Source of the DNA: Sinohyriopsis cumingii
Lineage: Eukaryota > Mollusca > Bivalvia > Unionida > Unionidae
Direction: 5' to 3'
Assembly: GCA_028554795.2 (NCBI GenBank)
Contig: CM068839.1
Coordinates: forward strand, 15,221,220-15,285,219
Length of the DNA stretch: 64,000 bases
Numbering within the stretch: the stretch's first letter is position 1; the number at the start of each line of letters is the position of its first letter. The notes beneath the pieces were generated by a model. That model saw nothing but the letters and a program-made list of their open reading frames with translations, made no database searches and had not been told where the DNA came from. Position numbers and translations under genes: made by a program. Positions 5,301 to 64,000 of the stretch are shown in pieces.

Positions 5301-8300
5301 CTGAATGTTCTATTTACCATTATACTTTTGCTTTCCAGAAACTTATAGAAATGCTGTTGAGCATCTAATTCTAAAATGTTTCTGACATATGCTATATATA
5401 CTCTTGTATAGGTTGAGTCCAACTGTTAAAAACATCAACACTGACCTGCTCTTGCATACTGTGCCATCAGATCAGTGATGTGCTGTTTGTTCTACTGATC
5501 ATTTCTAACAAACAGCACAGATCCAGATCTGCTAGTGTGTCATCAGGTCAAGGGCCATGTTGTTCTACTGATTATTACTAACAAACAGCACAGATCCAGA
5601 TCTGCTAGTGTGTCATCAGGTCAAGGACCATGTTGTTCTACTGATTATTACTAACAAACAGCATAGACACAGAAATGCTGGCACAATATGCAATGGCAGA
5701 TCTGGGTCTGTGCAGTTTGCAGTTTAAACTTGATTTATAAGTAAATGTATATGGTAGCAGTTAAAAATGTATTAAATATATTGTACTAAGAAAGTTTATC
5801 AAGTAACATCTTACATGTCATGTTTTTTTGTTAACAGTCAAAACAGAGATATGAACAACTCTATCAAACAAGAAGATGGTACTGAGGTAAATTAAATTAT
5901 AATTTTTTAGACATAAATTTCTTTCAAGTCAACTTAATAGTCATTTTAATATAATATTATATTTGCTTTTCTACAAGTAATTACTATTACAAAGAGATAT
6001 TAGACAATGATTGTAAACAACATAGACCAAGATCCGCCATTCCATAATGCACTGGCAGATCTGGGTCCATGCTTGGTGCTTGTAATAGTAAATAAAGCAA
6101 ACAGTATTGGCCAGTGATTCCACTAATGAACATCCCAGCTTGTATTATACAGAGATTTCCTCTAAAATACACTTTATTTTATGAGAACAGACAGTCTAGA
6201 AACTTTCAAAAATTCTGCCTGTATGCCAAAATGAACAGTCAGACACATCTAATTATGTTCCTAAGAGTAACTCTCCATCCCCCAGTTAGCAAGCTTTTAC
6301 AAAAGTATTCACAACTCATCAGTAACAGTTAACATTATTAATTACAAATAGCAACTTTATCAATATCAACAGTAATGGGAATTTTCCTCAACCTCAAAAA
6401 GTGATGATATTAAGACAATCTCCTTAGTGTTCTTTTTTGTGCATCGTTGAGCTGAAATTTTGGTCAACCAACACTGTTCGCATTTGTGTGAATGATACCT
6501 GTAAATATAGTAATATCCTTGACTGTGATAATCTGTGATCATCAAATCAAATATTGATAAATCTGATCATCAAGTCAAAATTTGATAAATTTTTGATCAA
6601 GTCAAATATTGATAAATCTGTGATCATCAAGTCAAATATTGATAAATCTGTGATCATCAAGTCAGATATTTATAAATCTGATCATCAAGTAAAAAATTTA
6701 TAAATCTGTGATCATCAAGTCAAATATTGATAAATCTGTGATCATCAAGTCAAATATTGATAAATCTGTGATCATCAAGTCAAATATTGATAAATCTGTG
6801 ATCATCAAGTCAAATATTGATAAATCTGTGATCATCAAGTCAAATACTATTTGCAGTCTGCGGTCAATGAATCATATTGTTTTTAATATATTAGCATCAT
6901 CAGATGTTATTGATAATATGTGGTCATCAAAATAATCATTGATCATCAGATTAGATTTTATTTTTAATCTGTTATCAAGTTTTATTTTCATAATATGTCA
7001 TGATTAAGTCAGATATTATTCATAATCTTTAATTACTAGATCAAATATCATTGATAATCTGTGGTTTTCAAGTCTGATATTATTGATAATCTATTGGCAT
7101 CAAGTCAGATATTATTGATAATCTAGGGACATCAAATTAGATATCATTGATAATCTGTGGTTATCAAGTCAGATATAATTGATAACCGGCAATTGTTTTG
7201 TCTGATATTATTGATAATCTACAAGCATCAAGTCAGATATTATTGATGATCTATGGTCTTCAAGTCAGATATTATTGATAATCTGTGGACATCAAGTCAG
7301 ATATTATTGATAATCTGTGGTCATAAAGTCATATTATTGATATTCTGAGGTCATCAAATCAGATATTGATAATCTATGGTCATCAAGTCAGATATTGATA
7401 ATCTATGGCCATCAATTCAAATTATTGATAATCTGAGGTCATCAAATCACATATTGCTAATCTGAGATCATCAAGTCAGATATTATTGATAATATGTGGT
7501 CATCAAGTCATATTATTGATAATCTGAGGTCATCAAATGAGATATTGATAATCTGTGGTCATTAAGTCAGATATTTTTGATAATCTGTGGCCGTCAAGTC
7601 AAATTATTGATAATCTGAGGTCATCAAATCAGATATTGATAATCTGTGGTCATCAAGTCAGATATTATTGATAATCTGAGGTCATCAAGTCATATCATTG
7701 ATAATCTGAGGTCATCAAATCAGATATTGATAATCTGTGGTCATTAAGTCAGATATTTTTGATAATCTGTGGCCGTCAAGTCAAATTATTGATAATCTGA
7801 GGTCATCAAATCAGATATTGATAATCTATGGTCATCAAGTCAGATATTATTGATAATCTGTGGTCATCAAGTCATATTATTGAAAATTTGAGGTCATCAA
7901 ATCAGATATTGATAATCTGTGGTCATCAAATCAGATATTTTTGATAATCTGTGGCTGTCAAGTCAAAATATTGATAATCTGAGGTCATCAAATCAGATAT
8001 TGATAATCTATGGTCATCAAGTCAGATATTTTTGATAATCTGTGGTCATCAAGTCATATTATTGATATTCTGAGGTCTTCAAATCAGATATTGATAATCT
8101 ATGGTCATCAAGTCAGATATTATTGATAATCTGAGGTCATAAAGTCAAATTATTGGTAATCTGAGGTCATCAAATCAGATATTGATAATCTATGGTCATC
8201 AAGTCAGATATTATTGATAATCTGTGGTCATCAAGTCATATTATTGATAATCTGAGGTCATCAAATCAGATATTGATAATCTGTGGTCATTAAGTCAGAT

Positions 8301-62574: not shown

Positions 62575-64000
62575 TGGATTTATTAACTAAAGTAACACAA
62601 CATAAATTTAAACTGGGTTTATTAACCTTGGTAACACCGTAGAAATGTTGATTGGGTTTTGCAATGTAGGTAACTCACTGGAAATGTATAGTGGGTTTAT
62701 AAACCTAAGTTACACAATATAAATGTAAAATGGGTTTTATTAGCCAAGGTAACACAGTGGCAATGTAAAATGGGTTTTATTAGCCAAGGTAGCACAGTGG
62801 AAATGTAAAGTGGATTTATTAGCCAAGGTAGCACAGTGGAAATGTAAAGTGGATTTATTAGCCAAGGTAGCACAGTGGAAATGTAAAATGGGTTTTATTA
62901 GCCAAGGTAGCACAGTGGAAATGTAAAATGGGTTTTATTAGCCAAGGTAGCACAGTGGAAATGTCAAATGGGTTTTATTAGCCAAGGTAGCACAGTGGAA
63001 ATGTAAAGTGGATTTATTAGCTAAGGTAGCACAGTGGAAATGTAAAGTAGATTTATTAGCTAAGGTAGCACAGTGGAAATGTAAAGTGGATTTATTAGCC
63101 AAGGTAGCACAGTGGCAATGTAAAATGGGTTTTATTAGCCAAGGTAGCACAGTGGAAATGTAAAATGGGTTTTATTAGCCAAGGTAGCACAGTGGAAATG
63201 TCAAATGGGTTTTATTAGCCAAGGTAGCACAGTGGAAATGTAAAGTGGATTTATTAGCTAAGGTAGCACAGTGGAAATGTAAAGTAGATTTATTAGCCAA
63301 GGTAGCACAGTGGAAATGTAAAGTGGATTTATTAACCAATGTAGCACAGTGGCAATGTAAAATGGGTTTTATTAGCCAAGGTAGCACAGTGGCAATGTAA
63401 AATGGGTTTTATTAGCCAAGGTAGCACAGTGGAAATGTAAAATGGGTTTTATTAGCCAAGGTAGCACAGTGGCAATGTAAAATGGGTTTTATTAGCCAAG
63501 GTAGCACAGTGGAAATGTAAAGTGGATTTATTAGCCAAGATAGCACAGTGAAAATGTAAAGTGGATTTATTAGCCAAGGTAGCACAGTGAAAATGTAAAG
63601 TGGATTTATTAGCCAAGGTAGCACAGTGGCAATGTAAAATGGGTTTTATTAGCCAAGGTAGCACAGTGGAAATGTAAAGTGGATTTATTAGCCAAGGTAG
63701 CACAGTGGAAATGTAAAATGGGTTTTATTAGCCAAGGTAGTACAGTGGAAATGTAAAGTGGATTTATTAGCTAAGGTAGCAAAGTGGAAATGTAAAGTAG
63801 ATTTATTAGCCAAGGTAGCACAGTGGAAATGTAAAATGGGTTTTATTAGCCAAGGTAACACAGTGGCAATGTAAAATGGGTTTTATTAGCCAAGGTAGCA
63901 CAGTGGAAATGTAAAGTAGATTTATTAGCCAAGATAGCACAGTGGAAATGTAAAGTGGATTTATTAGCCAAGGTAGCACAGTGGCAATGTAAAATGGGTT
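62575..64000. repeat. 39/40-bp minisatellite running off the window end, at least 35 copies
   Basis: The unit contains TTATTAGCCAAGGTAGCACA, then GTGGAAATGTAAAATGGGTT. Two types alternate in blocks: AAAATGGGTTTTATTA (40 nt) and AAAGTGGATTTATTA (39 nt). Five diverged units at 62575-62740 form the old edge. Minus-strand frames with repeated ATLANKSTLHFHC are artefacts of the repeat. Confidence 0.95.

What the first reader, a model, noticed from the sequence alone, without database searches (positions are those of the whole stretch)
6531..64000. More than 20 unrelated minisatellites packed into the introns of one gene
At least 20 arrays with different unit lengths (23 to 73 bp) and unrelated sequences occupy about one third of the window. 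Most lie between exons 4 and 15 of a single gene with only 1.8 kb of coding sequence. Each started from a different local sequence, so this is not one satellite spreading. It looks like a locus- or genome-wide tendency to nucleate tandem duplications.
Basis: partly seen in the sequence, partly recalled or inferred. Interest (0 to 1): 0.75.

Follow-up and report, generated by a model that had tools for sequence, protein, structure and literature searches.

The report
Home-grown minisatellites crowd one gene region
About a third of this stretch of a large, probably freshwater-mussel, genome consists of many unrelated short repeats that appear to have arisen on the spot, at about five times the density of a small random sample of the same genome, for a reason not yet known.

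Summary
In detail: TRF finds 28 minisatellite arrays in the window (22 with three or more copies), 20,701 of 64,000 bp (32%), with mutually unrelated units. Five of the 28 were searched against the 2.9-Gb genome; all five hit their own locus only, or nearly so, which points to separate local births and not to a spreading satellite or transposon cargo. The suggested control was run: 20 random 10-kb stretches carry 6.2% (0-29%). The window is about 5-fold richer, more through longer arrays than through more of them. The excess continues outside: 30% in the left 20 kb and 28% in the right 20 kb (18.5% without the array that crosses the window end). The region is strongly CpG-depleted with a TpG/CpA excess, as expected of a germline-methylated gene body, but CpG depletion does not predict minisatellites in the random stretches. 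Long arrays also fill introns elsewhere: one proteasome-gene stretch of 4 kb is all array, and 1 of 9 CCT-gene probes lies in one. Best reading: ordinary tandem duplication and array growth, tolerated in long introns, with regional clustering of unknown cause. The genome is probably Sinohyriopsis cumingii; the host gene is unnamed.

The parts
2951..3174 (.). minisatellite, 73-bp unit x3
   Evidence: TRF
3832..3868 (.). short tandem duplication, 19-bp unit x1.9
   Evidence: TRF
5487..5667 (.). tandem duplication, 73-bp unit x2.5
   Evidence: TRF
6526..8729 (.). minisatellite, about 30-32-bp unit with 3-unit (91 bp) and 273-bp higher-order periods
   Evidence: TRF; lag test 0 of 500 shuffles
9018..9192 (.). 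minisatellite, 37/74-bp unit
   Evidence: TRF
10811..15514 (.). minisatellite, 49-bp unit x96, 92% match; only its own locus in the genome search
   Evidence: TRF; genome search (1 candidate place)
16115..16683 (.). minisatellite, 52-bp unit x10
   Evidence: TRF
17776..22562 (.). minisatellite, 53-bp unit x90, 3-unit higher-order period; only its own locus; holds a dispersed repeat at 20357-20480
   Evidence: TRF; genome search (1 candidate place)
23966..24663 (.). minisatellite, 47-bp unit x15
   Evidence: TRF
25369..26169 (.). minisatellite, 29-bp unit x28, abutting a dispersed repeat (about 25200-25397)
   Evidence: TRF; genome search (40 of 49 candidates scored)
30081..30257 (.). minisatellite, 43-bp unit x4
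   Evidence: TRF
31355..32011 (.). diverged minisatellite, 33-36-bp unit x17
   Evidence: TRF; copy identity to consensus 0.80
36055..36179 (.). tandem duplication, 65-bp unit x1.9
   Evidence: TRF
36712..37107 (.). minisatellite, 30-bp unit x13
   Evidence: TRF
39400..39455 (.). tandem duplication, 28-bp unit x2
   Evidence: TRF
39509..39542 (.). tandem duplication, 16-bp unit x2.1
   Evidence: TRF
41527..41884 (.). minisatellite, 35-bp unit x10
   Evidence: TRF
48819..49294 (.). minisatellite, 23-bp unit x21
   Evidence: TRF
49516..49771 (.). minisatellite, 41-bp unit x6
   Evidence: TRF
51413..51995 (.). minisatellite, 38-bp unit x15
   Evidence: TRF
52737..53073 (.). minisatellite, 56-bp unit x6
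   Evidence: TRF
53307..53673 (.). minisatellite, 30-bp unit x12, 99% match (2 distinct copies of 12)
   Evidence: TRF
54494..54564 (.). short array, 25-bp unit x2.9
   Evidence: TRF
54950..55026 (.). short array, 27-bp unit x3.1
   Evidence: TRF
56569..57186 (.). minisatellite, 41-bp unit x15; own locus plus two weak (71%) places on C19 and C3
   Evidence: TRF; genome search (3 candidates)
58796..59104 (.). minisatellite, 44-bp unit x7
   Evidence: TRF
61931..62021 (.). short array, 30-bp unit x3
   Evidence: TRF
62574..64000 (.). minisatellite, 39-40-bp unit, running 2.4 kb beyond the window end (to 66404); only its own locus (TRF on the window alone starts it at 62668)
   Evidence: TRF; genome search (2 candidates, all matches here)
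2239..2359 (+). exon-like segment with a sub-threshold HEAT-repeat match
   Evidence: splice scan; PF02985 17.6 bits against cut-off 23.5 in a joined query
29500..29664 (+). exon-like segment
   Evidence: splice scan
30588..30773 (+). exon-like segment
   Evidence: splice scan
33528..33707 (+). exon-like segment
   Evidence: splice scan
54098..54252 (+). exon-like segment
   Evidence: splice scan

Best explanation
A cluster of independently born, single-locus minisatellites in the long introns (and probably the neighbourhood) of a gene that carries the footprint of germline methylation; the gene may encode a HEAT-repeat protein. (1) Short tandem duplications of about 25-75 bp arise from whatever sequence is present, by slippage or template switching in replication or break repair (inferred). 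(2) Arrays then grow by duplicating single units and, in some arrays, blocks of several units, through further slippage or unequal exchange (block structure shown in 6 of 20 arrays; the route is inferred). (3) Lying in introns that are spliced out, they are tolerated up to 5 kb (inferred). Steps 1-3 act genome-wide and give about 6% minisatellite in the random sample. Here something regional, such as break, recombination or replication behaviour or weak selection on intron length, makes arrays longer and more frequent over about 100 kb (excess shown, cause not shown).
For: Unrelated units. Genome searches of 5 of 28 arrays: 10811 and 17776 one candidate place each; 62680-63000 own locus only; 56575-56900 own locus plus two 71% places; 25200-25700 array part own locus only, 40 of 49 candidates scored. 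Density: window 32.3%, left 20 kb 30%, right 20 kb 28% (18.5% outside the array that crosses the window end, from the rows), random 200 kb 6.2%. All ten 10-kb pieces of the region are >=10.9%; 18 of 20 random stretches are <10% (p 8e-5). Block growth: 6 of 20 arrays with >=10 copies have a fixed-lag similarity reached by <=6 of 500 order shuffles. Cores more homogeneous than edges in 24 of 36 arrays, region and random together (p 0.039). Non-array CpG o/e 0.12-0.34, TpG/CpA o/e 1.29-1.41 in ten of ten pieces. Units CpG o/e 0.042 (45 units) and 22 of 4,530 TG/CA cells in arrays read CG, suggesting that arrays started from DNA already poor in CpG. Elsewhere: L035, 4 kb of a proteasome gene, all one 34-bp array; L041, a CCT gene, 384 of 400 bp in a 59-bp array.
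Against: CpG o/e does not correlate with minisatellite load in 20 random stretches (rho -0.07, p 0.78; five low-CpG stretches average 4.5%), so methylation is not shown to be a cause. 14 of 20 arrays show no clear block structure. No hairpin excess of 45 units over background (p 0.36) and no G-quadruplex run on the + strand, one on the other strand: no structural trigger found. The window was chosen for being striking, which inflates the excess. The random sample is 20 stretches on 9 contigs; genic controls are 13 genes and cannot separate 'introns of this class are all like this' from 'this region is special'. The far limits of the region were not found.
Confidence: 0.57

Rival explanations
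1. No local hotspot: introns of long, germline-expressed, methylated genes in this genome are generally rich in long minisatellites, and the window is an ordinary example.
For: 4,635 of 16,000 bp in four proteasome-gene stretches are minisatellite, 4,000 of them in L035; 1 of 9 CCT probes lies in an array, against 4.4% of 500 random 400-bp pieces at least half array. The random stretches mix genic and intergenic DNA.
Against: 8 of 9 CCT probes and 2 of 4 proteasome stretches have none. If this is S. cumingii, 37,696 genes of mean 38 kb (PMC10969987 table) make about half the genome genic, yet 18 of 20 random stretches are below 10%. The five CpG-depleted random stretches carry 0-9.6%.
Confidence: 0.3
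2. The arrays are central repeats of mobile elements, as described for oyster tandem repeats.
For: Oyster arrays of 13 clusters are carried by Helentrons (PMC7492417, abstract). Dispersed repeats touch or lie near some arrays here: about 25200-25397, the first 60-100 bases of 56300-56900, and 62229-62450. Units of five arrays of the random stretches recur in other random stretches.
Against: The five window arrays tested hit their own locus only or nearly so, two of them with their tested flank. Of the region's units only a TG-rich one in the right flank (74598) hit the random 200 kb.
Confidence: 0.05
3. Assembly artefact: copies wrongly expanded or collapsed.
For: Long arrays are where assemblers err; copy numbers are unverified and no reads were available. 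One array has only 2 distinct copies of 12.
Against: Most long arrays hold many variants (37 distinct of 95, 69 of 89, 55 of 72). No Ns in 104 kb. If this is the published S. cumingii assembly it used HiFi reads (PMC10969987 passages).
Confidence: 0.04
4. The arrays are selected regulatory or splicing elements, some units acting as recursive-splice-like (acceptor directly followed by donor) sites.
For: ACAGGT in 4 region units sense, 0 antisense, background 21 against 20; CAGGT 6 against 2, background 72 against 53.
Against: Post hoc and small; 41 of 45 units lack ACAGGT; AGGT overall is near background (4.0 against 3.4 per kb); in random units ACAGGT is 0 and 2. No expression data.
Confidence: 0.03

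Closest known systems
Oyster (Crassostrea gigas) dispersed satDNA-like arrays carried by Cg_HINE Helentrons (PMC7492417 abstract; PMC8268682 abstract passages)
   Same: Bivalve genome strewn with short tandem arrays; similar overall load (52 satDNAs making about 6.33% in C. gigas; 6.2% minisatellite in the random sample here, by another method).
   Different: The oyster arrays described fall into repeated families tied to mobile elements; the five window arrays tested are single-locus or nearly so.
Human minisatellite/VNTR loci (PMC8096271, listing only; composition and position recalled)
   Same: Arrays of tens of bp at single loci, many in genes.
   Different: Classical human minisatellites are GC-rich and often subtelomeric (recalled); these arrays are 33.7% GC, lie at 15.2 Mb of a 100-Mb contig and reach 31% of 104 kb.
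Eight minisatellites across human MUC2 (PMC2065792, listing abstract only)
   Same: Several different minisatellites within one gene region.
   Different: About a third of the DNA is array here, and it is non-coding.
Intron-rich tandem repeats of Daphnia pulex (PMC3152781, abstract and passages)
   Same: Tandem-repeat density highest in introns, called rare in animals by the authors.
   Different: In Daphnia units above 8 bp are less dense in introns than in other regions, the opposite of this locus.

Membership tests
Minisatellite arrays | Head-to-tail copies of about 10-100-bp units with sequence variants | tested here: met
   TRF; variant copies
Minisatellite arrays | Single-locus rather than dispersed | tested here: met
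   5 of 28 arrays tested: own locus only in four (one with 40 of 49 candidates scored), own locus plus two 71% places in one
Minisatellite arrays | Copy-number polymorphism between individuals | not testable with these tools
   one assembly, no reads
Helentron-carried tandem repeats (Cg_HINE type) | Same array with same flanks at many loci | tested here: not met
   for the 5 of 28 arrays tested; Helentron end motifs were not looked for
Satellite DNA library | Units shared between arrays at different loci | tested here: not met
   no two window arrays share units; the separate ~118-bp repeat at 62229-62450 does
Germline-methylated gene-body domain | CpG depletion with TpG/CpA excess | tested here: met
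   ten of ten 10-kb pieces; 25 of 26 4-kb bins measured, o/e 0.06-0.41
Germline-methylated gene-body domain | Measured CpG methylation | not testable with these tools
   no methylome held
HEAT-repeat protein gene | Pfam HEAT match above the curated cut-off | tested here: not met
   PF02985 17.6 bits and 15.3 bits against cut-off 23.5, on joined exon-like segments; a full gene model might score otherwise

The most novel reading that the evidence does not exclude
Some long germline-transcribed, CpG-methylated gene regions of this mussel are domains of about 100 kb or more in which new tandem duplication and array growth run several times faster than elsewhere: a localised germline duplication regime that inflates introns with unrelated home-grown minisatellites instead of transposons.
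Probability: 0.2. Interest if true: 0.7.

Novelty: new variant of a known kind. Interest (0 to 1): 0.42.

Why it matters
If regional domains of tandem-duplication growth exist, one mutation process that makes introns long could be studied at a site with dozens of natural replicates of different sequence. It also warns that a repeat annotation by RepeatModeler/RepeatMasker, which for S. cumingii lists 0.00% satellites and 2.09% simple repeats (PMC10969987 table), may leave out or misfile a class that reaches a third of this region.

Tried and rejected
Without result: naming the host gene (Pfam; PDB sequences): a sub-threshold HEAT match only; a passing thought of a HEATR5-like protein is recall and untested. 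tRNA and Rfam scans of the window: none. Hairpins: no difference from background; G-quadruplex runs: none on +, one on the other strand near 31214. CpG depletion as a predictor: not supported. Splice-like AG|GT: weak post hoc lead. Two scripts failed and were rerun: 16 (file name; rerun) and 67 (division by zero in a stretch that is all array; rerun).

Limits of the controls. Random positions were drawn from 16 contigs up to the highest coordinate then known, so distal parts are under-sampled; 20 of the 120 drawn were fetched, on 9 contigs; L026 holds 704 N. A further, unplanned sample, 14 flanks of 1.5 kb beside copies of one mobile element (L002-L008), holds 1,879 of 21,000 bp, 8.9%. Proteasome: 4 of the 6 places where two or more of the 22 PF00227 matches lie close together, positions chosen by hand before the sequence was seen; that each is one gene is inferred. 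Genome searches score at most 40 candidates: searches are not exhaustive; 88 and 89 repeated the array parts of 86 and 66 without the dispersed flanks.

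Full report
Setting. The window is C16:15221220-15285219 of a 2,904,868,851-base genome in 1,138 contigs. The published Sinohyriopsis cumingii genome has 2,904,942,185 bp, 19 linkage groups and 36.07% GC (PMC10969987, abstract and passages), about 73 kb more than G000. G000 holds a COX1 gene twice, 15,961 bp apart, on one contig and a lower-scoring COX1 on another. I read these as female- and male-type mitochondrial genomes, as in unionid mussels (recalled, not tested). S. cumingii is therefore likely, not proved.

Observation. TRF gives 28 merged arrays of period 10-500 in the window, 20,701 of 64,000 bp (32.3%); 22 have three or more copies. The largest are 10811-15514 (49 bp x 96), 17776-22562 (53 bp x 90), 62574-66404 (39-40 bp, running past the window end) and 6526-8729 (about 30 bp). 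No two window arrays share units.

Twenty random 10-kb stretches (L009-L028) hold 59 arrays and 12,422 of 200,000 bp, 6.2%, from 0 to 28.8%; 18 of 20 are below 10%. The 20 kb left and right of the window carry 6,075 and 5,661 bp (30% and 28%). On the right, 2,404 bp belong to the array that crosses the window end; without it the rest of the right flank has 3,257 of 17,596 bp, 18.5%. Over 104 kb there are 53 arrays and 32,531 bp, 31.3%. The mean of the region's ten 10-kb pieces (about 32%, from the values) is above the highest random stretch. For period >=20 there are 4.06 arrays per 10 kb in the window and 2.10 in random DNA; for arrays >=300 bp 2.50 and 0.55; median array length is 332 bp in the 104-kb region and 127 bp in random DNA (p 0.0003). 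Growth or retention, more than birth, sets the region apart. The finding was picked for being striking, so the true excess is likely smaller.

Genic controls. Four 4-kb stretches between matches of the same proteasome-type gene hold 4,635 of 16,000 bp: L035 on C15 is one unbroken 34-bp array of 113 copies, L034 has 635 bp in four arrays, L036 and L037 have none. Nine 400-bp probes in CCT-family genes hold one array (L041, 59-bp unit, 384 bp of the probe); eight have none. Cut into 400-bp pieces, 31.2% of 260 region pieces and 4.4% of 500 random pieces are at least half array. Two of 13 genes with the probe filled, or mostly filled, by an array lies between the two and excludes neither. So giant intronic arrays exist elsewhere; the dense cluster is probably a tail of a genome-wide trait.

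Local birth. 10600-11100 and 17500-18100 returned one candidate place each, their own. 62680-63000 hit only its own array. 56575-56900 hit its own array and two 71% places on C19 and C3. For 25200-25700 the array part hit only its own locus, with 40 of 49 candidates scored, while its flank is a dispersed repeat. Five of 28 arrays were tested; 23 were not. Units of five arrays in the random stretches do recur in other random stretches, so some arrays of this genome are of the dispersed kind.

How arrays grow. Of 20 arrays with at least ten copies, six show fixed-lag similarity reached by at most 6 of 500 shuffles of copy order, for example lag 3 in 17776-22562 and 25369-26169 and lags 3 and 6 in 6526-8729; 14 do not. 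Cores are more homogeneous than edges in 24 of 36 arrays, region and random together (p 0.039). Both fit repeated duplication by slippage or unequal exchange; neither picks the route. No hairpin excess.

CpG. Outside arrays the ten 10-kb pieces have CpG o/e 0.12-0.34 and TpG/CpA o/e 1.29-1.41; several CpG-rich kilobases coincide with dispersed repeats, for example at 1-1160, 28 kb, 47 kb and 55 kb. This is the footprint expected of germline methylation. In oyster, gene bodies are methylated, and tandem repeats at about twice the genome background (PMC4378273 passages). Units of the region have CpG o/e 0.042 against 0.607 for random units, and 22 of 4,530 TG/CA cells inside arrays read CG, which suggests that the arrays were founded from DNA already poor in CpG; homogenisation could also contribute. 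In the random stretches CpG o/e does not correlate with minisatellite load (rho -0.07), so methylation marks the place but is not shown to cause the arrays.

Gene. Exon-like segments on the + strand run from 2239 to about 69751 in a crude splice scan with weights of my own. A joined query gave a Pfam HEAT match below its cut-off. I could not name the gene, nor confirm 15 exons or 1.8 kb of coding sequence.

Literature (open-licence library, listings only unless stated). Searches: 502 papers, 20 listed; 195, 15 listed; 34, 15 listed; 4; 104, 15 listed; Hyriopsis cumingii with minisatellite: 0; 10; 9. None of the listed titles and abstract starts reports such clusters in mussels; the unlisted papers were not seen. 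The S. cumingii genome paper has no occurrence of 'tandem' in its main text.

Verdict. Observation confirmed. Interpretation partly supported: separate local origins for the arrays tested and a real regional excess over the sample, on a genome-wide background, extending beyond the interval given. The cause of the clustering is open.

Noticed in passing
1-1159: High-copy dispersed element: 39 other long matches at 91-94% identity among the 40 candidates scored of 11,032; its segment 1027-1152 also matches its own minus strand (83%), so it is palindromic.
   Followed up: partly
42114-45925: Broken LINE-type retroelement; the open frame at 43486-44256 matches RVT_1 (E 6.8e-19).
   Followed up: partly
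58434-59646: Open frames resembling a DIRS/Ngaro-type retroelement; resemblance recalled, not searched.
   Followed up: no
62229-62450: About two units of a roughly 118-bp repeat that forms arrays on C2, C5 and C10 and has scattered copies elsewhere, next to the single-locus 39-bp array.
   Followed up: partly
20357-20480: Stretch inside the 53-bp array that matches the 200 kb of random DNA up to 12-fold deep; probably a short mobile element inserted in the array.
   Followed up: no
L035 1-4000: Stretch inside a proteasome-type gene on C15 consisting wholly of a 34-bp minisatellite, 113 copies, 89% match.
   Followed up: partly
window units at 10811, 16115, 23966 and left-flank unit at -18420: Units carry a sense-strand ACAG|GT, like a zero-length exon; 4 sense against 0 antisense in region units.
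   Followed up: partly
40000-41000: The most CpG-dense kilobase of the region (32 CpG), nature unknown.
   Followed up: no
G000 C807 (L033) and C1106: COX1 twice, 15,961 bp apart, on one contig and a different-scoring COX1 on another, as expected of two mitochondrial lineages.
   Followed up: no
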